DNA of 64,000 bases, from assembly GCA_028015205.1 (NCBI GenBank), contig JAPWFG010000025.1:2418001-2482000 (forward strand), written 5' to 3'. The notes below the pieces were generated by a model. That model had not been told where the DNA came from. It worked only from the letters and a program-made list of their open reading frames with translations, and ran no database searches. This DNA is from Mytilisepta virgata. Its lineage: Eukaryota > Mollusca > Bivalvia > Mytilida > Mytilidae. Of this stretch, positions 30,301-63,340 are shown one piece after another (position 1 is the first letter of the stretch; each line of letters starts with the position of its first letter). The translations under genes and the position numbers were made by a program.

Positions 30301-33300
30301 CACTTTTTTAGATATATGTGGTGCATCGGTCTGATATTTAAAAATAAATTTCTGTAATTTTTCTTTTACCATACAATTACTATGAAACGCTACCACAGGA
30401 GTTGAAAACATATGCATTCGCAAACAGTAGAACGACCTTTAGAAAGGACTGTTTTGGAGTCGTATTGACATTTTTTCAAAGAATTATATAGATTCATTCT
30501 CATTTTGTAGATTCAACTGAAAAAACTACAGTTATGGAAAGATTTACATCAACAGGTATCCAAAATTACTTCGCAGTCATACATGAAATAGAGTATTAAT
30601 AACAATAAAGAACCATTTTAAATAGTCTACAGCACTTGCCTTAAAACTACGTTATATATGCTTAAACGTTCCTCGAAAAGTGCAGATCTGGTCTAGATAT
30701 AGCTTGTGCTAAATGCATATATACTGTAAATATATACTAACATTAATTTTCCACTTTTATTATTTGTCAGTTATCGTCGTGACATAAAGAGTAACAAGTG
30801 CAGACCCAAACTCCTGGGTGATCTAAAAATATATTAATGGTAAATAAAAAAAAAGTTCATCTACACGACTGCTAGGAGTCGATACCAAGCCCTCCATTGA
30901 TTATATGTTTGTGTCATGAGCTTTTTTTCTCCTTTTTTGTCTGATGGTTATATGGATTTTTTCTTTTGTCTGTTTTGTCGTCTTTGTTACAGATCTCTAA
31001 AATATAGCTTTTATTTTGTTTTGTCAAACTATAGAATCATTTTATTGCAAATAATAGATTCAATTGACACAACAGTAGAGTCTGGATCTTCAGAAGTAAT
31101 CAGACCAACCAAAACGAGTAAATTTTATGATACAAATCTACAATAAGGCCACACCAAATTAATCTTTCGCGTTCCAAATTCTGGACTATGTAAATTAAAA
31201 TATCTTTTCGTCTCTTCATTTTGCAAAAATGCTGAAAATGCATGCCCGAATTCTTCATTTATCGAGACATTAGAAATAAACATTGTTTTCATATTGCAAT
31301 TCCTTAGTTAAAAGAATGTGTTCCGCACTAAAATTTCATCTCCTCACACAAAAAACATCCAAAAATCCAACAGAACTAAAGGTACTGATATTTTCTGTAT
31401 TTTTTTTATTCTAACATGAAATGATTCACGAGGAGCCACTGTTCAGAAGTGGACGGCAGTGTTATTCGCATACCCAGTATATCTACCTTTAAGAAGACTT
31501 TATTTAGAGTCAAATTAACATAATTTCAAAAAACGTTTACACATTCATTCTCATTCTGGAGATTCAACAGAAAAAAACAATAGTGATTGAAATATTTGTA
31601 TCAACGGGTAACCAAAATTACTTTGCGGTCATAAATTTGGATAGAGTATTCATCTAATAAATGTTTAACTACCTTTTGAAATATAGTAAAGTTTTTGTCA
31701 AAGAACTACTTTATAATTATCTCGAGGAGTGCACCTCTGGCCTGAAATTAGATTGTGCGAAATGCATATATGTACTGTATATATGGATTAACATTCCGTA
31801 ACCATTTTTTAAAACCAAGACTTCGTCGTATCATATAGTGATAACGATTTAGTTTTAAAAATCCGAGTTAGGTCGAGTTAGTGCATTTATTCAATAGAGA
31901 CCCAAGTTAGCCCGAGCAAGAACTTTCATCGAATTCCGTAAACTTACCGTTGTGCAATTTCAACAAAAAAAATTACTTTCAATTACGCGATATAAAATAC
32001 GATACAATATGATACCAATTTCTATGGAAAAATATATGCTTCATTCATTTATAGCTAATTAGTTGTTCCGCTCCGAATAGGTGATGGAATAAAGAACAAC
32101 AGGTGCAGAGTAAAATTCCTAAATCCATTATGTTAATGGTACTTATAAAACCAGTTTAACTCCACCAGTGCTAAGAGTCAATACCAAGTCAACCCTCCTT
32201 CGTCTGTTGCTTTTCTTTCTCTCATTTTTTTTTTGTCTGATGATTAAGTCGATAAATGGCCGGTATTTTATTGTTGATATTTCCTGATGTTTTTTTTATT
32301 ATCGATGATATGGATCTTTAAAATACTCTTTTATTATGTTTTTTCAATCTATAGAATCACTGATTTTTTTTTTCAAATTGTACTGTCAGTGGACACAACA
32401 GTGAAATCTCGATTTTCAGATGTGATTCGATCAACCACACAGGGTAAGTGTTATAATATAACAATTAAATTATGGAAAAGATAGAAATACAAGGCAAAGG
32501 CAAGGTGGTTTTGATTTTGTGGATGTAAAATATTTGACATAAATGGGCCAAATATGCAAAGATGCGTTTAATAAGTATAAAAGGTATTGAGTGCAATATC
32601 CAACCAATACACCGGGCAAGTGGCAGAATCAATGTGACATGCAACACCAAACATAAATAAAATGTATATAATATAAATTATAGGGAGATTCCATTTTTTG
32701 TGAAATTGACAAAGTTCCATAACATGAATAATCTAGGAGTTTCCTCTAAATGGTATACAACGCCTTCATACACATCTCATGTGTCTAAACATTCTCCAAA
32801 GTCACAATGATCGGGTTAAAGCTGTAGGACGAGTTAATAACATAAAAATGACTATGAAAAAATAAAAATCTGAACACAATTATTCAAATGACATCACACT
32901 CCTTCATGCACATCTTCATTATAACCATAAGCCAAGTTTAAAAGATCTTGATTAAAAGCTATATTGGTAGGTGGTACCCGCCCAAAAAAATTATAAAATT
33001 CCACTGATGATATTGCATGTATGAATGCAGAAATTATGCATCATTGTGAATTACATTGGCTAGAGGTATGGGGGGAGGGTGGTTGAAATCTTATAACACA
33101 TGTTTAGCCCCGCCGCATTTTTGCGCCTGCCCCATGTCAGGAACCTCTGGCCTTTGTTAGTCTTGTGTGTTTTTTGGTTCATTTTTATGTTTCGGAGTTT
33201 AGTGTCTTTGCTGAACTAGTATGCATTATTGTTTAGGGGCCAGCTGAAGCCCGCCTCTGGGGGGGATTTTCTCGCTGCCTTGAAGACCCATTGATAGCTT

Positions 33301-36300
33301 TGAGCTGTTTTCTGCTCTTTGTTGTCTCTTTGACACATTCCCCGTTTCCATTCTCTATTCTATTCCAGGCAATCACATCCAATTTTGATTTTTATAGTTT
33401 TACAACTATTTACTAATATTTGGTAATTATTAACCAAAATTTTAAAAAAATAAACAAGAAATAGTCCAGTCAATCTAGCATAAATTTGACCCTAACCTTA
33501 AAGTAATTGCAAAAGAAGATTTTTAAGTTTTAATCTTTAGCATTATACCCCAAATATACACAGAAAAAAGTCCCAAAAAATCTAACTTGAGGAAGATTAA
33601 AATATCATGATTTTAAAATTCCTATGGACATTTGCATTGAAAATGGGAGATAACTCTGCAAAAAAGGCAGAAATATCAATAAAAATTGATACAAAATTAT
33701 AACTTCACCGCTTCTTTTCAGCAGAATGTATTGATTCTTGATATTTTAGCCGTCTTTAGAGTATAACAAACAACTCTAAAGTTTTTTTCATATCTTTTAT
33801 CAAGCTACAACCTAGATTTCGTAATTCATTAGTTGACCATTTATTAAATTTTCAACTTGTCAAGGTAAAGAATCTCAAATTTAATAAAAAATAATTAAGC
33901 ATATATTCTTCTTTTTGTGGTTTAACGTTTCTTCAAACAAGGTAGATGCTGATCAAATATAATTTACAGATATAAGCAATACCAATTTTTCATATTATTT
34001 TTTCAAAATGGTCACAAAGCCACAAATTTGCAATTTCTTTAATGAAAAATGCGCAAAAAAAATAAAAATACCCATAACATTTCGGTTTTGTACATTTCAT
34101 GAGCAGGAGATTATATGATATAGTCAAATACGAACTTATAACCCCATCATAGTATCATACTTTACATGAATTTTAAGAAAATTAACCAAAAACTGACAAA
34201 AAAGACTCATTTTTGCAGAGTTATCTCCCCTTTCCAATGTTAATTTCCATAGGAAATTAAAAATGCTGATTTTGAGTTTTCCTTATGTTAGATTTTATGA
34301 GACTTTTTTCTGTGTATATTTGGGGCTTAATGCTATAGATTAGAACTAAAATATTTTCTGTTGCAATTAGTTTGAGGTTAAAACTTAGTCTGACTGGACT
34401 AAAACCCAAATAAACACATTTTGAAATCTTTATTAAACATACGATTTAAAGGTAATTTCCGATATTCTTGATCTTAACCGTCTTGATTTTCACAATTTCT
34501 TAAATTTAGGAAAAACGCCAGATGAAAATACTAAAATAAAATAACAATCCAAAGATACTTATATTAGATATAGTAAATGTATACTATGCTGCACCAACAC
34601 TGCAGTCAATCGTTACTAGCTAACATCATTAATAAAGTTTCAGAATGAATGATATAATTTTTTTCGCTATTTTTACTATTTAAATTGTGTGTATAGCTAC
34701 TATACAGACAAATAATTGTAATGTAAGTGAATATAAAAATTCTGACCAATATGGACCAATATGGCGATGACATACTGTTGACTTTAGTGTATTTTGTTTA
34801 CTTTCGTCAACAACAGTTAAAACCTCCCACAGGAAAAATACATTGTGTATATATACTGAACCGCAAAAGAAACGTCGCTTTTTCAAAATGTTAGCAAAAT
34901 TCAAAATAAATATTAATTAATGATTTTTATATAATCAGTATTACGATTACATCACCAGGTAAGATTAAATTACCTGTGAATTAAATTTTCGGTTGAATAA
35001 TTTTCAGTTGATATCGTAGAGCGACCGTACCTAAAACCGCTCGTGGGACACACTTGGCGGTAATTTTTCTTAAATCTTAAATGTTCGTGAAATTCATGCT
35101 CCTTTATGGGTATAAAAGGCCGGAGAAAATTAAAGAGTGTTAGTATCAGTGTTGACAGAGAAGCTATGCCACGTCTGACTCCACAACAGAGAGAACAGAC
35201 CATTGGTCGATTGGATGCTGGGCAATCTGCCAGAGTTATTGCCAACGACTTCAACTGTGCTGTTCGAACAATTGAACGTCTACGGACACGGTACAATGCA
35301 ACAAACAGCACAAATGACCGTCCACGGAGTGGTAGACCCCAAGTCACTACCCCTAGACAGAATAGAGGCATTGTTCGTCACCATTTGATGAATCGGTTCA
35401 CCCCAGCTGCCGAAACTGCCAGAAACACTGTTGGAACACATGGACGACCCATAAGTGATGATACGGTTCGTCGGCGATTAGCTGCTAGAAACATGAGATG
35501 TCGCCGTCCAGCAAGAGGACCTATTCTTACTCCTCGACACCGTCAAGCTCGTCTTCAGTGGGCCACTCAGCGACAGAATTGGCGAAATCGACAATGGCGT
35601 AACATCATCTTCTCTGACGAAAGCCGTTACTGCATTTCAACAGCCGATGGCAGAACCAGAGTGTGGAGAAGACGCGGGGAACGTTACGAAGACAGCTGCA
35701 TTCTGGAAACAGACGCGTGGGGAGGACCTAGCATCATGGTATGGGGTGGAATCGGCCTTAACGTTAAACTTGGTCCAGTCATCTTTCAGAACCTTGGCCC
35801 AGGCAGAGGAAATGGCGTAACAGCTGCCCGTTACATCGACCAAGTCTTGACACCCCATGTTCAGCCCCATTTCGCACGTCATCAAAACAAGACTTTCCAA
35901 CAGGACAATGCACGTGCGCATACCGCAAGAGCTACAAGAGACTTCCTACAGCAGAATAGCATTAATGTTATGGATTGGCCGGCTTTGAGTCCAGATTTAA
36001 ACCCTATTGAACATTTATGGGACGAAGTTCAAAGACGGTTGAATAATGAGCAGCCAAGTCCGACAACTGCAGCTGAACTTTCACAAGCGTTTCAGAGAGT
36101 ATGGGCACGTATTCCGATGGCGTTTATTAATCGGCTCATCAACTCCATGTACCGAAGATGTGCCGCAGTAATTGGTGCCGGTGGAGGACATACACGTTAT
36201 TAACGGACGTGGGAGCACAGCATTGAAAACATGTGACGTTGCGACAATTGTGACGTTTTTGTGAACATTGTAACCAAAAGACTGTAAATCATTCATTAAA

Positions 36301-39300
36301 TTTTGTAAAAATTAATTTAAAATATATAAATGTCACTTTGAAATAAATGTATGTGAACATGTCATTTTGTGCGACGTTTCTTTTGCGGTTCAGTGTATGT
36401 AAGAATTTAGTGTGATTGTGCTAAACCACAGAAAGTTAAGTGAATAACCTAAATAATGGTTCTTTTTTAATTAAAATTAAGGAAAAAAATAAAGCAGAAT
36501 AAGGCGCTATTCATGTACCTACGTCTTTCATCTTAAAATGTGCTAATATACTAAGCGAACAAATTGAACTGGGATTCTTCTTAAATTAAGCGAAAGATAC
36601 GATACAGCACTTTGGTATGTAATAGAAGCGTTACTCACTTGCTACCTATATTTCTTATGTCTCATAGTCTAACGTTGAGTTGACTAATGGCAAAGTTTTC
36701 ATTTTTTAACAGCAAATTTTAAATATTGATTTCATTCTAGTATGAATTGAGCTGGAGATACTATGCGGACCTTTGGGTCAACCAGCAGAGGTATCGACTA
36801 ATAAATATTCCGTGAAATCAATTTTAATGCACAAGATGTGCATATTTCAAGTCATCTGTTGTGCTCAAGGCCTACAATATTCAAAGCCGATGTAATAAAC
36901 CCAAAGAAGGTTGTAATATAAAAAAGCACGAGAAAATAAAAGAGTTCTCAATTTACCTAATCCAAAATGCATTCTAACGCACTAAGAAAACCATATATAA
37001 CTGGGGGGAAAATCCACACGTCACTGATCAATTGATAACGCTTGTTCAAGCATGTTCACACTGGTTATTCAAAGCCAATTTAACTTTAAATTACAATGTC
37101 AATGAAAAGATAAACATACTGTATATAATATGTTTATTAACAATAACGACGTAAAGTCTTCTTGTTCTATAATTATTGACTAATATTTGTTCTCTTTCGA
37201 TATTTTAGAATTAGTTGATACAGCCACGTATCGTGTTATGCCAGCAAAACCAAAACCAACTATAGACGGTCAGTTCTGCTTGTTAATGAATTCACTTAAA
37301 TATCATAAAAATGTATCAGTGACAAATCAGAGGAAAATACCTAACTCAAAGTACAAAAAAAACAATTTATTACAAATTTATAAACAAAAGGAAAAGAAAC
37401 GAGCAATCCAAAGTGAATTTGAACAACTATTTGACAACACTGTACAAATCATTAATTAGTTAATTAGGTGACACCAGTTCCTCGGAGAGGAACGCACTTT
37501 ATTTGATGCAAATTGTGATGCACAAGATGTGCACATTTCCCTAAATGCTGACTCATCAGTTATGTTCTAGGCTGAAAATGTTGACAACATAATTAAATGA
37601 TAAATTAAATGATGAGATTATATTAATTCGTGTCAAACCTGGAAAATAATATATCTAATCTCTTTCGTGAAATAGAAACTTCATATAATTTGTTTATTGT
37701 TCAAACATAAGGAACAATATTTCATTCCCACAGAACAAAAAAGTTTGTAAAGTTAATTTTTTAAGTTTGCAACCACGACTAAAAATCTCATTTTTATATT
37801 AATAGCTTAGGCCACTCCAAATCAATATCTAGTTCGTCGGATTCGCCGCGTGTATTTCGGCAACGGGAAGAAAAAAATAATTTTTTTTTCCGCCGCGTCA
37901 AATCCGGAACCGCCCGCGTCCGAACCCAAATTTAGAGAAAAAAATTTTTTGTCACTTGTGCGTTTGATACACAAAGGCCGTAATAGCGTATTCAATCGTT
38001 AAATCATGTAAATTATCGATACAGAATGACTTAGAAGAAAATGGGCAAAATATTTGTGGTGTCTGTTGTTTCAAGACAGTCAACTCTTATCAATAACACA
38101 GCTTTAGATATAAGTGACGCCGATTCAACTTTCTTACAGTTATTCCAAATTTTGAAACAGAAACCCCAAAATCATGACATTTTGAAAAAATACAGTTACG
38201 ATGACATCACAAAAATATCCATCTCCGGGACCGAGCCACATTCGCACTCGCAGGTATCTTGCATTGAAGTGTCAACGGACATGAAACTGACAACATGTGA
38301 GGACCTTAAATGCAAATACATCAAATTTTATGTCTCTTACAAAGATCAAATCAATCAAACACTCTCAAGTGACCCACAGGCACCAAATCGGCCCAATGCA
38401 TTTGCAATCATGATAGCAGCACAGAATGAATTTCTGTTCCCACCAAAGCCAGTTGGGGAAAAGCTTAGCGGTCCACAGAAACTTCTCTCTGATATAATTT
38501 CCTGGATAGAAAATTTTGATAAAGGGTGGACAAAAGATGTTATAGAAACGGGGAGTATTGTGTGCAAAAAATTTGCCAACGCTCTATGGTATATAGACCA
38601 CTGCCATAAAAAAATGGAAAACAATGGCTGTCCTGTTCCCCAAGCCTTGAGGGCATTTCATGGGTATAGCGATTATAAAAAGAGTCACCATGTTCCACCG
38701 ATTATAACTTCTGAAAAACTAAATGAACATTGCATGGAACTAACAAAATGTCTGTCATTTCCTTCAATGGCTACTACACAGCATAAAGTGCTAGCAAACC
38801 ACATTGAATCTCTTTTACAATGTCTGACAAAATATAAGGAAAGGCTTGACAAAGACAATTTTAGACATCAGACTATATACCATGCTAGATCTGAGCCAGC
38901 GCGCAGTACGGAAAGTGATACCACTCTGCAACTAATACATGAAACATGTGATGTAAATGACATTTATGCAGAATTGGACAAAGAAGTTAAGAATGCTAAT
39001 GAATATACAGTCATTCCATTGATAAACTTTGAACCAAAAGATCGCATCGAAAGAAGAAAATATATTAAGGGATTAAAGCTATCAAAACCAATCACCATTT
39101 TTAGAATGGCATATGGTGGTGGATTAGGGACATTGAACTTTATTTGGAGTGTTGATATGGAAGATCCTTGTGAAATGACACAGAAAAACACCAAATTGGT
39201 TGCTGAAATTTCTAAAGATTTACCGAAGTATTCAACCAGAACAATGCGAAGGGATTTCATTAATAGGTATTCTGATTATATTAAAGCACCAAAATCTGTA

Positions 39301-42300
39301 CTGCGGTACATGTATCATGAATTGACAAATACTGAACAAATATCTATAAACGAGGAACAGCATTTGATCAATGAGAGAGTAACACAGATTTTATTAAATG
39401 GTGACGATCCACAACTATTATTAGACTATCGGTCACTGAATGGAAAAAATGTTGACACAAAATTTAATATCTTTTTTGAAGAGCTTAACAAATACTTTGA
39501 TGAACAATTAATGGCTGTCCATGAACGTAGACATGGGGATGAACTATTTTTACCCTTAGCAATATCAGTGGAGGACTTGAAAAACGAAATTAAGAAAAGA
39601 CTACCGGATGATGAAAACATACCAATCCCAAGTTCAGAATTAATTCGCCTCCAGTTCATGCCAACAAATCCGTTACACAGAACATCGCTTAAATACACAG
39701 GCCGTTTTAATGTAAAATACAAAGTACAAACTCGGCAAGCCAGAATAAATCATCCAGATGCTAGATATGTGGCATGTTTATTCCGATACCTCAAAGAATT
39801 TTGTGTCAAATATAGAATGGATACGTATTTTGTCTGTCTTGATGACAAAGCAATAGTTCCAGTAGGGGAACCAGGAGTGCCAGTTTCAACTGGAGTAAGG
39901 GCCCATAATAGAGCTTTAGCTCCAGCAAGTGGTCAGCAGTTGACAGCATTAGACCATGACTTTCATGTAGGAGGCCTTGTACCTTCAGTCACATTAGTGA
40001 CCAATATTCCAACTGATGCTAATGATAGCTTTTATGATGGCGAGGTGTTTGTAACAACAAAGGACAAAGTATTTCAACCGTCTTCGCCTTTTCGTCATTC
40101 CACAGAACTAACCAGAATTCTTCAAGATCACTATGCAATCAATGAAGGAGATTTGGCAGTACCCATCTTATGTATAATGACCGATGGAGGCCCTGACCAT
40201 AGAGTGACGTATGAAACGGTTAAAGCATCTTTGGTGCATGTTTTTATGAACTTAGATCTAGACTTTCTCATTGCTGTAAGGACTGCACCAAATCACAGTT
40301 GGGCAAATCCAGCAGAAAGGGTGATGTCCCTTCTTAATCTAGCTTTACAACATTGCGCGTTGGATCGTAGTGAAATGCCTGAAAAATTTGAAAAAATGGT
40401 AAAGAATAAAAGTAGCCTGAATGCCATCAGAAATACTGCAACAATTCGTGCAGGTCTGAAAGATGCTTATGAATCCAGTATCAAGCCTGTTATTGATCTG
40501 GTAAATGGAAGATTCGAGAGAATGAAATTTAAAGGAAAATCACTCAGAGTGTATGAAGGTCTTCCAACGGAAGTTATAGATAAAAGTGTAGAATTTCTGG
40601 CAGAATCAATTGGTGCATGTAATGATAGGCTTAATCAGAATGCATCCAGTAAAGATCTAAGAGAATGCAAAGAGCTGCAGGTAATTTTATTAGGAAAAAG
40701 AAAAAATCTTTAATCTCTTCACTTCATATTAAGAAATGAAAATCTTTGGTGGGGAAAATGGGGGGGGGGGAATAATGGGACATTTTTGAAACATTGAAAA
40801 AAAAAACCGACAAATGGAGTCTGGTTAACAAGTAGGAAACTTTAAATAAACAAAAACTAGGAACATTGACAATTCAATATAAAGCAACAAATAAAAAAGA
40901 ATATTAAAATCAAGAAAATCATCATGAGCAAAAGGGACAATTACTGTATGTATTTGGGCACTTTGACGTGAGTGCATTTTAACTTGTATTGATATATAGA
41001 AACTCGTTTCTCTCCCCATTAACCAAAAATCCCTTCGACAAAAATATACGCAGCAGGCTTAATTCATTTTTATTAGCCCTTTATAGGGTGATCAAGTAAG
41101 TGTTGCATTATATATTCAGTTTTTTGTGTTGCAGTGTAAAATCAAGCTCTCAGATACATTTGTACATGTATATAATATCCAAATGTTTTTATTTCATGTC
41201 AATAAGGGCATTGCCAATTGAAACCACATCTCAAAATTTATCTTGAATTGAAGAAAACAGCAGTAAAAATTAAAGGAACTCAAGTATAAAACAAAAAATA
41301 TAACACCCAACAACCATACACAACAAAATATTGTATATATATATAGTATTACACATTTAGAATTTATATGTATGGATTTGGTACTGGCAATGACACTAGC
41401 AATTGCTACAGAATTTACTTGGTTTATTTGTATTCAAACATCCTGTTTCCTATATCCAGTTTCCATGTAGTAACATACAAAAATATGTGATTATACATGT
41501 GTATAAATTATTGACCTGGATAACCACCTTACAAAACAAGACATTCACTTTATAGATGGATGGAGGATTAGTGTTTTATGCCAAGTCAGTTATGATGTCT
41601 GTGAGATGATCCCTGATCTTTATTAATAGAAAAAAGTCTATAAGTGTACTGTAAACTAAATATGTTTATATCATTTCAGGAGTTCATTTCAAGGCATTGT
41701 AGAAGCAGCCATTACATATTTCAAATTAAAAAGTGTATGGGAGAGGAGCCATGCTCATACTGTGTTAAGAATCCACCAAACTTGGAAGACGAAGTTATTG
41801 AGGGGTTGAATTTCTTGCCATGCCCAGTTCCAGCTGATGAAAACCAACAGTATAAAAAATTTGAAGAGGTTTGTACTTTTTACTGAAAATTTTATTTGAA
41901 GAGTTGTTTCTATTTCACATTGCAATGAAAAGCTGCATTTTTGGCTGTCAAATCAACTATTGAGGGCTCCAACTCTTCAAATACTATTCTGTTATGCCAC
42001 AGTATATGTAAATAGTCTTGGACTAGAAATATGCAAAAGTACTTTATTGCTATTTGTGACAGTAAGAAAACAACCATATTTTAACATAAACTTGTCTCGT
42101 ACGGGACATATGGTATACAAATGTAGTACTATATTTCTGTCCATCCATTTTCACTATGTTACATACTGCAAAATGTAACTTGAGAACCCTTGAACCAATT
42201 CACTTCAAACTTAGTTATTGTGTATGATAGTCTCATAAATCTCTATTTTTTTTTACAGATTTTTCAGATTTTCCTTTCAAGGGTTATGGGACTTTATTGA

Positions 42301-45300
42301 AAGCCATGCAAGTTTACAATAGGTGTATTAAGAAGTTGGGAGCATTTGGTACAACCAATTTTTTTTCAGATGTTATTTAAAATCTGATATGATTATGATT
42401 ATTTAACTTAATATTTTGTTATTCTATTACATTGAATTACCGTCTTATGTTTTTCAGTTGTACGGACAAGCCTTTGATGATTCTCACAGACCATCAGCTT
42501 CTGCAGTCACTGAATATGAAGCTGAAGCTGTTGAAGCAGACAAAAGAAACAAAGACCTGTTGAAGGCGGGAAAGGCCAGGGATGCAATTTTATGCTCAGA
42601 ATGCAACAAGCCTAGAGTTATCTATAGCAGCAATAGATTAAATGATGAACAGGTATAACAGAAAACAAATAATGAGAAATATAATTCAAAAAATTGTGAA
42701 TCAATAACATGGCAATAAAAGTAAAAGGACAAACATAACAGCATAATGATATAAGATGACTCATAGATATAAAAAAATGGAGATCTGGTATGATTGTCAA
42801 TGAGACAGCCATCCATCAAATAGTTAAGATTAAATAATTAAACTTCTACAGGTCACCATAGAGACTGTTCTACTCACCCATCTGTGTACTGCATAAAACA
42901 TGACACCCAAACCAGTGCAAATAATATGAATAGTTCTTTAGTTCAGTTTCCTATAACTTCATAATCATTATCAAATAAATGTTAAATTGAAATTTATATA
43001 GTAATATTTATTATTTCATTCTTCTATTTTAGGATGCAGTTTTAAGACGACTAAAAGAAGAGTCCTCATATATCTGTGGTGATGCCATGCCAGAGGAATG
43101 TGGTATGATAACAAGAGAAAGTCTTCATTGTTCAAGTGAAATAGAGACAACATACTATGGTTCCACCGTGAAAGCCTTTCTACCACCTTGTTGTGTTTAT
43201 TGTGGAAGTTTTGAAAACTTGATGGAGTCGTCTGATGATTACATATCAGAATTATTACGACAGTACTCAGTTGTAAGGCCATTATGTGTTCAATGTAGAC
43301 AAAACGGGTTAGAAGCAAAATTATGGGGGAAAAAGTTTTTGAAAAAGTCTACGAAATAACTCTGTAATCTTGTATTTGTTACAGTTTGATGAAGCCAAAT
43401 GTGTATTACATATACAAGTGAAATATGTTTAAATTGAACCAACTGTGTGAAAACATGCCTTGAAGTTCTTATGCATCAAAATTTATACATTCTAACCATG
43501 TTAAAAATTAGCATATCTCTTTAAGAACAAAATAAAATCTTCTGGCCCAAAGGACTTTTGGTTTGACAGGTTTTGATGTAATATGTTTTTGACACCATTG
43601 ATGTTAAAAAGACTATTATTTTTATGATCTTTAGGTGGTTAATTGGTGTCAGAGTAACTGATTGTGGTTTCCTTACTGACAAGCTAACTTTAATCATATT
43701 AAATTTTTCATATGTTAAGAAATAGGAATTTCTTATTTTGTCTCCTTTCAAAGCTTGTAGAATACATTTTGTTTAATCAAATAATTGTCCAATTTAGCTT
43801 CATAATTGATTGTATTTTTATATTGAAATATATCTTGAGTTTCCAGATGGAGTATGCTAAATCTTGGTTTCAGTTTTTATATTTTTAAAGTAGTTGGAAG
43901 TTTAATATTTTTAAAATTGTTTTTCTTTTTTTATTTCTTTTTTGGTTGGAAACTACCACTAAATGCATATCAACTTTGTATTTTTCATAATAAGTATAAA
44001 CAAAATTATTTTAAATTCTGCAGTTTTAGAGAGTTTAATTTGACTATCCAAATATTACATTTTACTTTATTAAATAATTCTATATAAAATTTAAAAAGAA
44101 AAGCATTGAAAAAAGTATACTGAAAGTCATGAATATTTTTCAATGTTATGCCTAGTTTACCAAAAAAAACCCAAAGTATTAATGACATTAACAGGTATTC
44201 AGTCTCATCCAGGTGTACATCTTTTGATATTTATTATTGATATATACATGTGTATTGTTTACAAACAAATGTTTTATGCATTTTTTTTGTATTTTTATGA
44301 TACAAGAGTATCTGTGATAGTTTATAGAGGTTTATCTCATGTTGTTTTATTATTATACCCCCACTAAGAGGAGTAGAGGGTTTTGGTGCTAATATTCCAA
44401 GGAGGAAACAATCTGTTACTTTTTTTACATTTGTTTTATTTATTTTAATTAAAATAAAAAATATTTACTTGTAAAATCTTTGTTTTATGCCATATATAGC
44501 AATAGTGCTTCTGGTAAATCTGCAAACTAACTGCATGCAAGGGGAATACCATTACATCATACTACAAATGTTTATATAAATACAAGCATATACAAGTGCC
44601 AAAATGAAGTAAGCATCTCCTGTCAGTTGAAAAAATATTGAGTCAATACAGTAAAGCCTGATTTCTAGTAGCATTTTATAAAGTAGAGGAAATTACTGCA
44701 TGAACTTTTATTATGACCTGATGACACAAATGCACAAAAATTATTATCGCTCGCTCAATTTTTCATCTTTGGTGAAATTTAATTTTTTATAAATTTGAAG
44801 AAAAAAATCGCTCGCTTGGTGAAAAAAGCTTCGCTTCCAAAAAACTGATTTTTGAAAAAAAAAAAAAAAAAAAAAAAATTTCGCTCGCTCGCTACATTTT
44901 TTTTCATATAGTTGTCCGAAGAACTAGGAATTAATTTGGAGTGGCCTTAGGACTAGCTGTAAAATTCATGTCACGACGAACTTTAATGTGGAAATATCAA
45001 AGTTTGATATACAACAAATTGCCGTTGTAACAGGGGCACCGAACAATGTTCCGTTTTTGAATATGTTTAACCAAGTTTTATTGTATTGTATTATCGTGTA
45101 AATATTTTGTGTTCTACAGGAATTCTTTTTACCACAATAAGTGCTATCATCGGGTCTTTTGCCAGTGCTGTGATTTTCTTACATATGATACAGATTATAG
45201 GCGGGAGACGGTTTATTGAAGAAAATGGACGATTTTTGGTAAAATGTTTCAAATTTTACAAAACGCCAGTCCTTTACCTCTAAAGTACACATTTAGTGTA

Positions 45301-49447: not shown

Positions 49448-49855
49448 TCACCTGTTATCTTTACAGATTTGTTTTATTGTCGAATTAATTATCGTTGCTC
49501 TTGCATTAATAAAGTCGTCTTTAGTAATAGTTATGGACGACATAATAACACGTCCTTCTGGCAATTGTTTACACACTACTTTTAACCACAATTTCAATGA
49601 TTCCAGCTCCTGCTGTACTACATACAATTGGTGATATTCATTCAAATACAAGGGACATTTACTCAAATTATTTACACCAGCAAGCACAAAAATAACATTT
49701 GGTTGATATGTAGCTACAAGATTTTGTAGATTCATATGTACATCATTAATTAAACCTCCACCTTCTGAACTTATGTGTACCATTGAATTTTTATAAGAGA
49801 AATCACCTACAGTACCGTGAAATTGTAGAATTGTGGAGAAAAAGTATTTTCTCAT
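49448..49855 (-). CDS. SGNH-hydrolase-like ORF of the Ngaro-like element
   Basis: 135-aa open frame with EGGGLINDVHMNLQ (Gly block) and NVIFVLAGVNNLS, the GxND-like block III of SGNH/GDSL esterases, then a helical segment and RVIMSSITITKDDF. The N-terminal GDS serine block is not visible in this frame and the C-terminal His block is uncertain, so it is probably a partial domain. A hydrolase ORF is known in some Ngaro elements; its role is unclear. Confidence 0.55.
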   Translation of the reverse strand: MRKYFFSTILQFHGTVGDFSYKNSMVHISSEGGGLINDVHMNLQNLVATYQPNVIFVLAGVNNLSKCPLYLNEYHQLYVVQQELESLKLWLKVVCKQLPEGRVIMSSITITKDDFINARATIINSTIKQICKDNR

Positions 49856-50122
49856 AAGACGACCCAGAACAATGGTCCTTTATTCTAATGGCCCACAAAT
49901 TCCAAGATAACCCGTGCCTGTCGGGCATATACCCCTTTTTGTTGGATATTTCAGTACATCCTTTTGACCTTTAAAACCTAGCACAAATGCATCTTCTACA
50001 AAATTTTAAAAACCTGGCAACCACGTAGGTATTCCCATCTACTCGCAAAACAAGTTTACAATAACTTCTGTTTTCTTTTAAAAAACTTACTATTAGCAAA
50101 AGCCAATCAAAAGGCGGAAAAC

Positions 50123-50485
50123 TTAACAGTTTTCACATTTGTTAATTTCCTGAGTAAAAACGTTTACACCTGAAGATAAAGGAGTTTGAAAATGTGTAAA
50201 ACGTTTTAAGATGTTGCCTTTTTTATCCCTCATACTATTTGAATCTAAAGCCATTAGATCTGAAGTATGTCCAGTATCTTCACCAAATGTTCTTGAATTT
50301 TTTTGCCAACTATCTTTAGTTATGGTTGCGTCACACTTTGGTAAGGTTCTCGACGGTTCACTAGCAATATTGTTTTTTGAAGCTATATAATATAGGTTCA
50401 AGACAACATCAGAATCTTGATTACAGAATTTAGCTGGGAAGACAGAGCCCTCACTATTCCAGGCGTATATTAATGCTAGCGTCAA
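50123..50485 (-). pseudogene. RT/RNase H C-terminal fragment of the Ngaro-like element
   Basis: 120-aa frame with NLYYIASKNNIASEPSRTL, the RNase H-end signature, then DLMALDSNSMRD and TPLSSGVNVFTQEI, a tail characteristic of DIRS/Ngaro polyproteins. Upstream frames (to about 50,600) continue with NRKAQALLNLLSLF but are broken. Confidence 0.62.
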
Positions 50486-50600
50486 CGCGATATCCTTTAA
50501 TTTGATTTTTAAATAAACTCAGTAAATTTAGTAACGCTTGCGCCTTGCGGTTTTCTTGTAAGTTTAGATCATACAAATTCATATTTCTTATTTACCCCCG

Positions 50601-53327: not shown

Positions 53328-53932
53328 TGTTATGATATTGTAATTATTACATTATTTATCTTGGCCTAATTTGTTTTGTGTGGCCTTATAACATGTAAAG
53401 TATGTTTACATAATATTTATAGTTGTTTACCAAATAATTTTATAACTGCGCAGTTTAGAAATCACTGGAACGATAATAGATACTGATGGAATGACTAGAA
53501 CTTTCTATTTGACTTACGTAATAATTCTGGGGTAATTCAAACTTCTACCGTATTCACGAAGTTTCCGTTCTACAGTATATATACGGACAAGAAAGTTAGA
53601 CTTTCAGAGAGCAGAACGTGTTGGACCAGACATTCTTGTGTTCTCAGCTGTTGGATTTATTTACGTTTCACACATCATCCTTGACATACTTTTATTTACG
53701 TTACATCATACTAGATTGTGACTGATTGGATATAATATTCCGTTTGGATTCCCGCAACAGTGACGAGGAGAATTCCGGATTAGGAAAAGACGAAGGATTT
53801 TGAACAGTTAAGTTGACATTTTAGTTTGTGTAATATTTTTTGGTAAACTTGTATATAATAAATCTTGTTAAATTTTATTATTGATTTGTGTCTTTTGTTG
53901 GCTACAATTTAAAAGTGATTTCGGCCGTAACA
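53328..53932 (+). mobile_element. Possible solo LTR (605 bp)
   Basis: Begins TGTTATGATATTG and ends CCGTAACA (TG...CA with short inverted ends). Internally it has CAGTATATATACGG (TATA-like, 53,573) followed by an RNA-start-like GAGAGCAGAACG, and ATAATAAATC (53,858) as a polyadenylation-like signal. No target duplication, primer site or polyprotein was found, so the call rests on internal layout. Confidence 0.4.
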
Positions 53933-54084: not shown

Positions 54085-56815
54085 AAGTCTCCCAAACGAA
54101 GTGGGAGACTTATAGATTTTGATTTGCGATTTTTATCGAACGTTTTTTTTTTTTTTCTTCTCTCCGATTTTGTTCGTCCGAGTTCTCAATAACCGTCAGA
54201 GATTTGGATTTGAGATGTTCTAGGATGAAAGATCAATGTTTCTAGATGTTCCTAATGCTACTCATTTTTGATGGGGGTCATAGACGTATAATGAGGAGTT
54301 CAAAAAGGCTATGGGTCTACTATAAGACCCTGTTTGGAATTTTTTTCATCAAAAAACTCTACGAAAGTGATCAATAACAATCTCATATCATATATTTTAT
54401 TGAACACTATGTCAACACAAATTAAATGACATATACCTCGTTCCTCTAGCGGCCACCCTCCCCCTCCCCCCCCCTAAAGTCGATAATTTTGAAAATTTTC
54501 ATATGAGATTAAAATCCATAGCTTTAAATCATATATTTTATTATTCTCCGTAACAAGACACATTAAATGACATGTACCTCATTCCTTCAGTAGGGTGATC
54601 CTCACCCCCATAAATCAATAATATCCAATTATCTCATAAACCATTAAAATCCTCAGCCCTAAACCATATATTGTCTTATTTCCCATGGTAGGACGCGTCA
54701 AATGACGCTTACCTCGCTTTTCCGGAGGGTTATCACCACTCACAACAAATCAATAATGTTTAATCATCTTATAAACCGTTACAATTCCCACACCTAAACC
54801 ATATATTTTCTTATTCCCCATGGTAAGACGCGTCAAATGACACATACCCCGCTTCCCCAGGGGGTTATCACCAGTACCATCGAATCAATAATGTTCCATT
54901 ATCTCACAAATCGTTAAAATCCTCACCCTTAAACCATATATTTTCTTATTTCCCATGGTAAGACGCACCAACGGACACATACCTCACTTCCCCAGGAGGA
55001 TATATCACCACTCCCATCAAGTCAATAATGTTCAATTATCTCATAAACCGTTAAAATCACCACCCTAAACCATATATTGTCTTATTCCTCATGATAAGAC
55101 GCACCAAATGGCACATACTTCACTTGCCCATGGGGTTATCACCACTCCAATCAAATCAATAATGTTCAATTATCTAGTACATTTTCTACGGTCAAGCGCG
55201 ACGTCATAATGATGAAACGGCATAATAGCGGCGCTGAGAGCGATGCGTATAAACAATACCGTGATTCCCCTTTGAATGATACATACCGCATTACCCAATG
55301 TGCGTCATTCTGGCCCCCTTAAACCAAATATCTTGAATTATATAAAAGTCTAAAATCTGTAAGAAACCCGACACGTAAACCGTATATTTTCTTATTCCTC
55401 ATGACTAAACGCATGAACTGATATATACCTCATTTACCCAAGTCTTCATCCCCACCCCCTCAAATCAGTAGTCTTAATTATTTCTTAAAGCATTGAAATC
55501 CATACCCCAAAATCATATGTTTTCTTTTTCCCATTATAAGACAAATTGTTTGATAAAAACCTAACACTCCACCAAAAGGAGGAGGGGATGTCATCCTCGC
55601 CCCTCAAATTAATATTTTTTCATTATTTCAAATCCGTAAAAACGTTTATCCCTTTATCACGTTTTAATACACAATGTTTAAATCTTATAAACCACATGTA
55701 TTTCTAATTGCCTATTAGGAGACACAATAAATGATTTTACATTTTATTCCCTCGTAAAAAATCAACAAAAGACATTGATATCCTTGGCCCTTAATAAAAC
55801 ATTTTTATTCTTTGTAAAAAGCTCAGATATCCTTAGAGTTCATGTCCCACCCCTTAAACATTGGATGTATAATCAGTGTTTCTGAATAGCTTTGAAACTG
55901 CTGGCCGGAATCATCATTATGCTCATGACAATACCTAGTGAATGCAAAATTGGTATTGTTCGCGGAAGAAAATACATTGTTATATATCATAAAAAAATTC
56001 TTAAATAATATTTTATGCTAAACTGTATTGGTCTAACTTTTTTATTTTTTGTCTGATTTCATGGGGCTTGTTTATTATGTTTATTATTATGTTTTGTATA
56101 TTATTGCTGGAAACAGGTTCTTTCGATTCGTTTTTGTCTATATTTGTTATCGCTTTTGAGATATAAGGTGACGCGCTTTTTTTTTGAAACTTTTTAATAC
56201 TTCATCGGATTTGATGATTTTTTTAATGATTCCTCACGAAAAACTCAACAAAAGTTACTGCAGAATTTTATTTTGTATCTTTCACCAAAACAAACAAAAT
56301 TTTATCGGGTGAATGTGCAACTCAATTATTTTTTATTAGTAATGTGGTGTTTTATCTTTTAATTATTCTATTTTCTGTCCTTACATCATATTGTAGATTT
56401 AATATAATATTGATACAAGGAAGACACCAATGTATCAGACAAAATATGTAATAATAGATATTATTTCATTTGCTTGGTCATAATTTAAAAACATGTCTTC
56501 TTCTGTTGCAAATGAAACCTAATTCATTTTATAACACCATACAATAAAATCAGTTCATGTAAACAGTTCTGAAATTTTGGGATATATATCTGTCAATGCA
56601 GCATGTCGACAAGCAAAAGTTGATCAAATGTGACAATGTATGACTGTAAAAATTGGGTAACAAAATATATCCATATCACGATTTTCAAGTTACCTCTCCA
56701 TTAAGTATGCAAAAACTTTATAGGAACATTTCCCAATTTCAGTCTCTGAAAAACAAATAATTTATTGAATACAATGTAGGCATTCGAGATATCAGTTACT
56801 TCGTTTGGGAGACTT
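54085..56815. mobile_element. Repeat unit bounded by 18-bp inverted ends
   Basis: AAGTCTCCCAAACGAAGT at 54,085-54,102 is perfectly inverted at 56,798-56,815. The interior holds a minisatellite and AT-rich non-coding DNA. The left end is itself partly palindromic (GTCTCCC...GGGAGAC). No target duplication is evident. Confidence 0.5.
54395..55600. repeat. 135-bp minisatellite array
   Basis: ACCATATATT(G/T)TCTTATT-type anchors fall at 54,528, 54,663, 54,798, 54,933 and 55,069, spacing 135-136 bp; degenerate units follow at about 55,378 and 55,511. Each unit carries CCCATGGTAAGACGC and a C-rich ATCACCACTCCC segment. One unit near 55,178-55,300 is interrupted by a GC-richer insertion. Confidence 0.85.
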
Positions 56816-61900: not shown

Positions 61901-62037
61901 TCCTCTACTTTGGCTATTTTGTCAATAACGTTTTGTGCTCACAGTCACAGATGAAACTCTCGTACCCCAATTTATACACCGATGACATTCACTAGGCAGG
62001 AAGTCCTTGATGACCACAAGACCGTTCTTCACTAAGG

Positions 62038-63340
62038 GTGAAAAAATTGACCTTCCCGTTCTTTATACGATTCCTACACAAGAATCCATTTAAACAAAGG
62101 TACATTGCTGGGTTAGCTAATTGCTCTACAAAACATTTTTCAAAGATTTTAACATTCATATTGACATGTATTAAAATGGGCCTTCAGAATTACTTTGAAA
62201 TATCATATTCCGCCAGTGTCGTCAATCAGTTTTGGATTCTCAAAAATTCAATAAAATTACTACAATATCTAAAATCAAAATCTTTGACCATATGCAAGAA
62301 CATAAAAACATTTGACTTCTCTACACTCTTCACTACCATATCACATTCTCAATTAAAATATCGATTGAAAAAATAGTTCAGCAATGTTTTTTTCAAGAAA
62401 ATTGGCAGACGCAGGTATACATTTCTAGTTTCAGGTAGAGAAAAGGCTTAATTCGTGAAGAACCACTCTGACAAAAAGTATTCTGAAGATGAAAATACAA
62501 ACTTGTTAGATTTTCTCATAGACAACATATTTGTTGAATTGTGGTCTAATTTTTCAGTTGGGAACCAACTGTGTCCCTATCTCGCCGATCTGTTTCTGTA
62601 CTCATATGACGCGGACTTCATTCAAGGGCTACCACGTGAAAACCAAAAAGAAACTAGCCCTAATCCTTTAATTTCACTTTTCATTATATAGATGACGTGT
62701 TGCCGTTAAATAGCGACAAATTCCAATACTTTCTATATCGAGCTTGAAATTAAGGATACCACAGATACATCGACGTCCGCTTCATATTTGGATTAGTTTC
62801 TTGAAATAGACAATGAGGGACATTTTAATACAACACTTTATGACAAACGTGATGACTTCAACTTTCCTGTTGTTAACTTTCGCTTCTTGTGTAGCAATAT
62901 ACCAGCATCGCCTGCATAAGTCATGAATTAAAAAAAGAGGATTACTGCTGTCACAAAACCTTCTCAACCAGGACCTTATCAAGGATAAGCTGATGTCATC
63001 ACTTAGGAAATTTTACGGTCGTCATCACTAATTGATTGACCGTGACAGTGTTCCAATATCTAAGATGATGGGCCTGTCGTAACATTTCATGTACCTCCAC
63101 TGATTTTTGACTACCATCGGATTGACTTTGTTACACTTAATGACGGGTGCCGTATACGGATTTACCCTTCTGATACACCTGAGTTCAATCCTGGTTTTTA
63201 TAGGGGTTCGTGTTGCTCATTGTTTTTTAGGTTTTAGTGTTTATTTGTTGTGATTGTTGTTGTTCTTTTGTCTTCCCGGGTTTGTCTGTCTAATGGATGC
63301 TGTTTTTGGTTTGCTCCTTCGGTATATGTGTCCTCTTTAT
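62038..63340 (+). pseudogene. Penelope-like element, reverse transcriptase remnant
   Basis: Successive frames give LHKNPFKQRYIAGLANCSTK, then IKTFDFSTLFTTI (a conserved RT block), LLDFLIDNIFVELW, ADLFLYSYDADFIQGL, HYIDDVL (the catalytic YIDD at 62,685-62,696, in a shifted frame), IELEIKDTTDTSTSASYLD and LYDKRDDFNFPVVNF. That is the full order of a Penelope-type RT, broken by at least four frameshifts or stops. The usual mussel repeat tail (GGGGTTCGTGTTGCTCATTG) follows at about 63,200. No GIY-YIG endonuclease was recognised. Not functional. Confidence 0.8.

What the first reader, a model, noticed from the sequence alone, without database searches (positions are those of the whole stretch)
37810..44946. 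Intact 7.1-kb DDE transposon of unassigned superfamily nested in an intron
Seen directly: 32-bp inverted ends with 28 matches, TTA on both sides, and an uninterrupted four-exon gene predicting 1,116 aa with D602/D715/E759-like motifs (LDDK, TDGGPDH, NPAERVM) and four CxxC pairs. Known: a 3-bp TTA/TAA target occurs in PIF/Harbinger, but those transposases are about 350-500 aa and have no such C-terminus. Inference: a large-transposase lineage that may not be described, at least as an element with defined ends and target site.
Basis: partly seen in the sequence, partly recalled or inferred. Interest (0 to 1): 0.87.

Follow-up and report, generated by a model that had tools for sequence, protein, structure and literature searches.

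The report
Large Zator-like cut-and-paste transposon
This is an apparently complete jumping gene whose very large transposase belongs to an animal protein family that the Pfam domain library does not recognise, and whose core and target site point to a distant kinship with the bacterial ISAzo13 insertion sequences and so with the known Zator group.

Summary
The main observation holds. Window 37810-44946 is a 7,137-bp element with 32-bp inverted ends (28/32 matching) between two TTA copies. It carries an open four-exon gene for 1,116 aa.

The protein belongs to a large family seen in bivalves, a limpet, a starfish, a lancelet and many unnamed contigs. None of 52 members scanned matches a Pfam transposase model at E<=1. 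The second and third catalytic residues are 43 residues apart in all 91 members measured. The predicted core is an RNase H-like transposase/integrase fold; Foldseek ranks mariner Mos1 first.

Two lines place it near bacterial ISAzo13, the prokaryotic counterpart of Zator. First, weak but specific profile similarity to one ISAzo13 lineage: 23 of 26 proteins beat all 540 shuffles, against 0 of 14 controls (but 0 of 5 classical ISAzo13). Second, that lineage inserts at CTWAG with 3-bp TWA duplications and GG..CC ends; this element sits at CTTAG with GG..CC ends.

So "unassigned superfamily" is only partly right. I read it as an autonomous cut-and-paste element on the ISAzo13/Zator side, with an N-terminal ubiquitin-like domain and a C-terminal cysteine-pair region. 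Whether Repbase already lists it as Zator could not be tested. No second complete copy was available.

The parts
37807..37809 (.). Left copy of the 3-bp target duplication, TTA (context CTTA|GG)
   Evidence: Sequence; printed with flanks
37810..37841 (+). Left terminal inverted repeat, 32 bp, begins GGCCACTCCAAAT
   Evidence: 28 of 32 match the right end
38041..40680 (+). Exon 1 (880 aa): N-terminal ubiquitin-like region, helical region, probable helix-turn-helix region and DDE catalytic domain
   Evidence: homologues; fold of the Ostrea homologue and of this protein's residues 401-860
38041..38337 (+). N-terminal domain (about residues 1-99), beta-grasp/ubiquitin-like by homology to the modelled Ostrea protein
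39241..39660 (+). Probable helix-turn-helix DNA-binding region (about residues 401-540)
   Evidence: Foldseek aligns 433-444 columns with full-length Mos1 and VIA-align pairs model residues from 1 with Mos1 from residue 9, at rmsd above 20; moderate confidence in the model here
39724..40542 (+). Catalytic RNase H-like domain (about residues 562-834), triad D601 (or D602), D715, E759
   Evidence: D-43-E in 91 of the 92 aligned cores, the other having a gap
41680..41868 (+). Exon 2
42458..42652 (+). Exon 3
43033..43359 (+). Exon 4 with stop codon; with exons 2-3 it carries the C-terminal cysteine-pair region (CxxC at residues 905, 989, 1062, 1093), probably zinc-binding
   Evidence: of 17 relatives of at least 985 aa listed, 16 have four or five CxxC pairs after the catalytic Glu and one has three
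44915..44946 (-). Right terminal inverted repeat, 32 bp
44947..44949 (.). Right copy of the target duplication, TTA (context CC|TTAG)
   Evidence: Sequence
31147..31178 (+). Solitary related end outside the element: TAA|GGCCACACCAAATTAAT, no partner end found in the window
   Evidence: 1 mismatch in 16 specified bases; 21 of 32 to the right end, 20 of 32 to the left

Best explanation
The stretch 37810-44946 is an autonomous cut-and-paste DNA transposon. Its one gene makes a 1,116-aa DDE transposase that should bind the 32-bp inverted ends, cut the element out, and join it at a 3-bp staggered cut in C-TTA-G, leaving TTA on both sides. The catalytic core belongs on the ISAzo13/Zator side of the mariner-like (ITm) DDE transposases. 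It differs from the bacterial enzymes fetched here (mostly about 340-420 aa) by an N-terminal ubiquitin-like domain and a C-terminal region with four CxxC pairs, probably zinc-binding. SHOWN: ends, TTA copies, open gene, family, triad spacing, predicted fold. INFERRED: transposition itself, ISAzo13/Zator kinship (two independent but individually modest lines), roles of the outer domains.
Against: Only one complete copy was available, so target duplication and ends rest on one insertion plus one solitary end. Classical ISAzo13 proteins give no signal (0 of 5), and no member reaches PF07592 (0 of 52 at E<=1; all matched families seen). The all-ISAzo13 profile only just exceeds the best of its shuffles (26.2 against 25.2). 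The 26 signal-giving proteins are related to each other, so they are not 26 independent tests; several align over only 64-88 columns, and for L082 the first Asp is not aligned. All 30 flank pairs come from one genome. PIF/Harbinger also prefers CTTAG-like sites (recalled), so the target alone does not decide. VIA-align ties Mos1 with retroviral integrases, and Foldseek's TM-scores to Mos1 and Metnase over the whole chains are low (0.2-0.5).
Confidence: 0.75

Rival explanations
1. It is simply a Zator as already catalogued in Repbase: same superfamily, only missing from Pfam and NCBIfam.
For: Zator is described as the eukaryotic partner of ISAzo13 with 3-bp duplications (PMC10045372; PMC5718144 passage). 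A bivalve census counted 44 Zator elements with long ORFs, restricted to bivalves, and curated three (PMC10294476). Our family is ISAzo13-like with a 3-bp duplication.
Against: Zator was defined by kinship to Pfam PF07592 (recalled), and 0 of 52 members here reach PF07592 at E<=1. No Zator protein sequence was available to compare. The family is also found in a limpet, outside bivalves.
Confidence: 0.45
2. It is an unnamed, superfamily-rank lineage beside Zator: a large-transposase group of animals derived from the same ISAzo13-side ancestor.
For: Not recognised by Pfam or NCBIfam; about 1,100 aa with added terminal domains; signal only to one ISAzo13 lineage; no title or abstract start listed by my ten literature searches describes such a family.
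Against: Repbase and Dfam could not be searched, and most subscription papers are not held.
Confidence: 0.4
3. It is a divergent PIF/Harbinger element.
For: The 3-bp TTA duplication fits (canonical Harbinger makes 3-bp TSDs: PMC12730594 passage); GG..CC-type ends also fit (recalled).
Against: No PIF/Harbinger-type or other transposase match in 52 members; IS5 proteins show no profile signal (0 of 3); Foldseek ranks mariner-type proteins first.
Confidence: 0.04
4. It is a domesticated host gene, not a mobile element.
For: Open reading frame and first intron conserved with relatives.
Against: Sits between matching inverted ends with TTA on both sides; a second related end lies 6.7 kb away; several protein clusters stand for tens to hundreds of sequences, though these may be repeats across samples.
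Confidence: 0.03

Closest known systems
ISAzo13 family insertion sequences (Pfam PF07592), lineage of locus L006
   Same: Order D-x-K, LDHDF, DGG, NPxE(H)R in the core; D-E spacing 43 here, 42 counted by eye in the L006 protein; GG..CC ends; 3-bp TWA duplication in CTWAG
   Different: Bacterial, L006 343 aa, no outer domains seen; sequence similarity only at profile level; PF07592 does not recognise the animal family
Zator superfamily (eukaryotic)
   Same: Eukaryotic, 3-bp duplication, ISAzo13 affinity (literature); placed in the IS630-Tc1-mariner group (PMC7386202 passages)
   Different: Not comparable here: no Zator sequence in the tools I used
Tc1/mariner (Mos1, Sleeping Beauty)
   Same: Predicted catalytic fold; D-x-K / DxxPxH / NPxE-type motifs (Tc1/mariner motifs partly recalled; the window's Tc1 ORF has QDNARAH and LNPIEH)
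   Different: TTA rather than TA duplication, about triple the size, no Tc1/mariner Pfam match, no hhalign signal to the window's own Tc1 protein
PIF/Harbinger
   Same: 3-bp TTA/TAA-type target, GG..CC-type ends (partly recalled)
   Different: Transposase unrelated at the sensitivity used

Membership tests
Zator | 3-bp target site duplication | tested here: met
   TTA on both sides of one copy
Zator | Transposase groups with named Zator transposases | not testable with these tools
   No Repbase/Dfam sequences at hand; no Zator sequence was seen in the listings or passages of the ten literature searches
Zator | Kinship to ISAzo13/TP36 transposases | tested here: inconclusive
   Profile signal to one ISAzo13 lineage (23 of 26 above 540 shuffles; 0 of 14 controls; 0 of 5 classical ISAzo13) but no PF07592 match
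ISAzo13 (PF07592) | Match to PF07592 | tested here: not met
   0 of 52 members at E<=1; three real ISAzo13 proteins reach 4e-107 to 5e-149
ISAzo13 (PF07592) | 3-bp TWA duplication and GG..CC ends, as in the L006 lineage | tested here: met
   TTA in CTTAG for the window element; 26 of 30 distinct flank pairs carry TTA or TAA duplications in one Cupriavidus genome
Tc1/mariner | TA duplication | tested here: not met
   TTA; reading it as TA would make the two ends unequal by one base
Tc1/mariner | Tc1/mariner-type transposase by Pfam | tested here: not met
   No such match in 52 members; the window's Tc1 ORF does match PF13358
PIF/Harbinger | 3-bp TWA duplication | tested here: met
   TTA
PIF/Harbinger | IS5/PIF-type transposase | tested here: not met
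   No such Pfam match in 52 members; 0 of 3 IS5 proteins with profile signal
CMC (EnSpm, Mirage, Chapaev) | C(2)C and H(3-4)H between second D and E | tested here: not met
   Of the columns between second D and E only two are over 30% C or H: one invariant His (+5) and one mixed A/C column (+34); definition from PMC12730594 passage
hAT/Kolobok/MULE/P/Dada | C/DxxH between second D and E | tested here: not met
   The one conserved His lies at +5 from the second D, three after an invariant or nearly invariant Gly, so no conserved C/DxxH; definition from PMC9587614 passage
Academ | Academ-type transposase | not testable with these tools
   No Academ sequence or model used; the AcademH paper is not held

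The most novel reading that the evidence does not exclude
A previously unnamed superfamily of animal DNA transposons: very large (about 1,100 aa) ISAzo13-derived transposases that gained an ubiquitin-like N-terminal domain and a zinc-binding C-terminus, widespread in bilaterians but invisible to Pfam, with the CTWAG target kept since the bacterial ancestor.
Probability: 0.35. Interest if true: 0.72.

Novelty: new variant of a known kind. Interest (0 to 1): 0.56.

Why it matters
The family is frequent among bivalve proteins and reaches a limpet, a starfish and a lancelet, yet the named records listed mostly call it 'uncharacterized', 'hypothetical' or 'unnamed'. With defined ends, target and catalytic residues it could be masked properly in genomes and tested for activity. 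It would give a concrete case of a bacterial-type 3-bp TWA inserter enlarged in animals, and of a transposase with an ubiquitin-like domain, for which I know no precedent (recall; the one search that named this domain, listed 12 of 33 papers, none of the 12 holding the phrase).

Tried and rejected
PIF/Harbinger, CMC, the C/DxxH superfamilies and Tc1/mariner proper were considered and rejected on protein features. Classical ISAzo13 proteins gave no signal, and the first small ISAzo13 profile (six proteins) gave only E 0.22. hhalign with the window's own Tc1 gave nothing. Sequence search of PDB with one protein gave nothing, with a profile two irrelevant weak rows. Pfam rows for exon 1 (DUF249 E 0.04, PB1 E 0.15) lie below their cut-offs and were taken as chance. 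Relatives were sought in viral contigs, prokaryote genomes, phages and plasmids: none convincing. Best plasmid matches were E 0.2-0.7; the Ensifer one over the D2-E region (H62, E 0.5) was not followed. Control loci sought in viral contigs were few: one IS5, one IS3, three IS66 (one of these used), none for Tc1. The end-like site at 53369 (3 mismatches) is at chance level. No inverted partner for the end at 31147 was recognised. The VIA-align rows are a second look at Foldseek's matches; families absent from them are not excluded.

Dropped rows: A2 held 93 of the 123 proteins then known plus the window (94), A3 51 plus the window (52), A4 61 plus the window (62). Of 94 in A2, 14 missed one of the motif patterns (P0014 and P0015 are cut short); one search used the 92 rows with the core and measured 91. 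In one search, 132 of 170 sequences had a recognisable core. Of 11 ISAzo13 loci fetched, six gave an ORF over 300 aa and were used. In one search, 98 loci encoded a relative and 80 were kept; 69 ORFs matched L006 well enough and were cut to 26 by removing those identical over a 160-residue stretch (my notebook says 27, which is wrong). In one search, 34 copies with both ends gave 30 distinct flank pairs; three of the 30 do not share 3 bp. One search showed only 25 of 39 matched Pfam families, so I scanned the same 52 members again in two halves, where all families are shown.
Full report
WHAT IS THERE. The sequence shows two 32-bp ends in inverted orientation at 37810-37841 and 44915-44946, 28 of 32 bases matching, with TTA directly outside each. 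An ungapped pair that good is expected about 9e-5 times anywhere in the surrounding 7.6 kb (analytic estimate). The element is 7,137 bp with G+C 0.33, like the window. The pre-insertion site, read by joining the flanks, is ..AGC-TTA-GGAC... A further related end, TAA|GGCCACACCAAATTAAT, lies alone at 31147.

THE GENE. Four exons (38041-40680, 41680-41868, 42458-42652, 43033-43359) with GT..AG introns give 1,116 aa without a stop. Six database proteins were compared with it: five of 1,095-1,115 aa (Ostrea, Mercenaria, Pecten, Pinctada, Patella) align from window residue 16-89 to the C-terminal end at 36-55% identity, and one of 1,029 aa from Patiria aligns from residue 111 at 38%. The alignment printed for the first five crosses all three exon junctions with small gaps. 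In the truncated ORFs printed I count 12 close relatives that read through the same first donor site (10 with LQ^V, one VQ^V, one FQ^V); many other members instead end at an FQ^V site about 15 residues further on. The gene model is therefore well supported, though no transcript was seen.

THE FAMILY. One search with exon 1 found 16 proteins. Two searches with catalytic regions found 292 and 318 at E<=10, 120 listed each. Named sources in these lists are bivalves (Ostrea, Mytilus, Pinctada, Mercenaria, Pecten, Mya, Magallana, Saccostrea, Dreissena), the limpet Patella, the starfish Patiria, the lancelet Branchiostoma and one record filed under a bacterium that is probably host DNA; many contigs are unnamed. 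No member scanned matched a transposase model: Pfam 0 of 52 members at E<=1 (one search showed 25 of 39 matched families; searches show all of them, each matched by one member per half, best E 0.006); NCBIfam 0 for the two window pieces scanned, exon 1 and exon 4; PDB by sequence 0, or two irrelevant weak rows with a profile. In 92 aligned cores, the second Asp and the Glu are D and E with 43 residues between in 91; the other has a gap at the Asp.

ISAZO13 SIDE, PROTEIN. I took ISAzo13 proteins from plasmid records (six of 11 loci usable; PF07592 verified for three), and relatives of one of them, L006, from prokaryote genomes. A family profile against single proteins: L006 alone scored 5.5 sd above its 60 shuffles, with five other ISAzo13 and nine further proteins at or below 1.6 sd. 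Profiles scored 28.4 (L006 group) and 26.2 (all ISAzo13), against 100 column shuffles of the latter with mean 16.1 and maximum 25.2. With a broader profile (132 of 170 sequences had a core), 23 of 26 L006-group proteins beat all 540 pooled shuffles; 0 of 14 controls and 0 of 5 classical ISAzo13 did. Alignments pair D-D-K with D-T-K, ALDHDF with LDHDF, DGG with DGG, and NPAER with NPIEHR. This is remote and partly non-independent evidence: the 26 proteins are related to one another, several align over 64-88 columns only, and for L082 the first Asp is not aligned.

ISAZO13 SIDE, DNA. Thirty distinct flank pairs of L006-group copies, all in Cupriavidus necator UYPR2.512, could be read: 27 share 3 bp (TAA 16, TTA 10, TAT 1), C precedes in 27 and G follows in 24, and the ends are GGAACG..CGTTCC. 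Two of the three pairs that do not match have a right flank also seen at another copy, which suggests recombination between copies. Three other loci printed (L006, L015, L030) show TTA or TAA and GG..CC ends by eye. The window element has GG..CC ends and TTA in CTTAG. PIF/Harbinger also has such a target (recalled), so this supports but does not prove the kinship.

MECHANISM. Most likely, dimers or higher forms of the transposase bind the ends through the probable helix-turn-helix region. The DDE site cuts and joins, and the 3-bp stagger at CTTAG is filled to give the TTA copies. The cysteine pairs probably hold zinc and the N-terminal domain probably mediates protein contacts. All of this paragraph is inference from anatomy.

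KNOWN OR NEW. Zator is described as the eukaryotic partner of ISAzo13 with 3-bp duplications (PMC10045372, first two of five parts of the text read; PMC5718144 passage), and as a superfamily of the IS630-Tc1-mariner group (PMC7386202 and PMC8533490 passages). A bivalve census counted 44 Zator elements with long ORFs, found only in bivalves among the molluscs studied, and curated three (PMC10294476, sections 11-12 read, passages seen). No title or abstract start listed by the ten literature searches describes this large family, but most subscription papers, Repbase and Dfam were out of reach. I therefore do not file it as a Zator member. I call it an ISAzo13/Zator-side transposon whose rank is open.

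WHAT WAS NOT SHOWN. No second complete copy, no natural empty site, no activity, no host gene around it, and no proof of the host species: the search of the window's own genome did not complete.

On re-reading the calls I closed one gap (the capped Pfam list) and corrected wording on alignment extents, intron distance and the sizes of bacterial proteins.

Noticed in passing
34848-36401: A second, ordinary and apparently complete transposon: Tc1-type, 31-bp inverted ends (94% complementary) around an open 370-aa ORF (35091-36203) matching PF13358 and PF01498.
   Followed up: partly
31147-31178: Solitary end related to the finding's element (TAA|GGCCACACCAAATTAAT) with no partner found in the window.
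   Followed up: partly
49448-49879 and 50123-50518 (minus strand): Two ORFs that look to me like fragments of a retroelement (an SGNH-hydrolase-like piece and a reverse-transcriptase-neighbour-like piece); resemblance recalled, no Pfam match at E<=0.01.
   Followed up: no
62014-62376: 120-aa ORF resembling a piece of a reverse transcriptase (recalled), no Pfam match at E<=0.01.
   Followed up: no
54525-55175: Tandem array of a 135-bp unit, 4.8 copies.
   Followed up: no
protein P0069: Family member filed under uncultured Candidatus Thioglobus: probably host DNA in a symbiont assembly (my inference).
   Followed up: no
proteins P0016 and P0125: Family stretches inside proteins annotated PIP5K (Mytilus edulis) or carrying kinase domains (Branchiostoma belcheri): gene-model mergers or fusions.
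   Followed up: no
L035-L078: A Cupriavidus necator genome carries dozens of copies of one ISAzo13-type insertion sequence with a clear CTWAG preference.
   Followed up: yes
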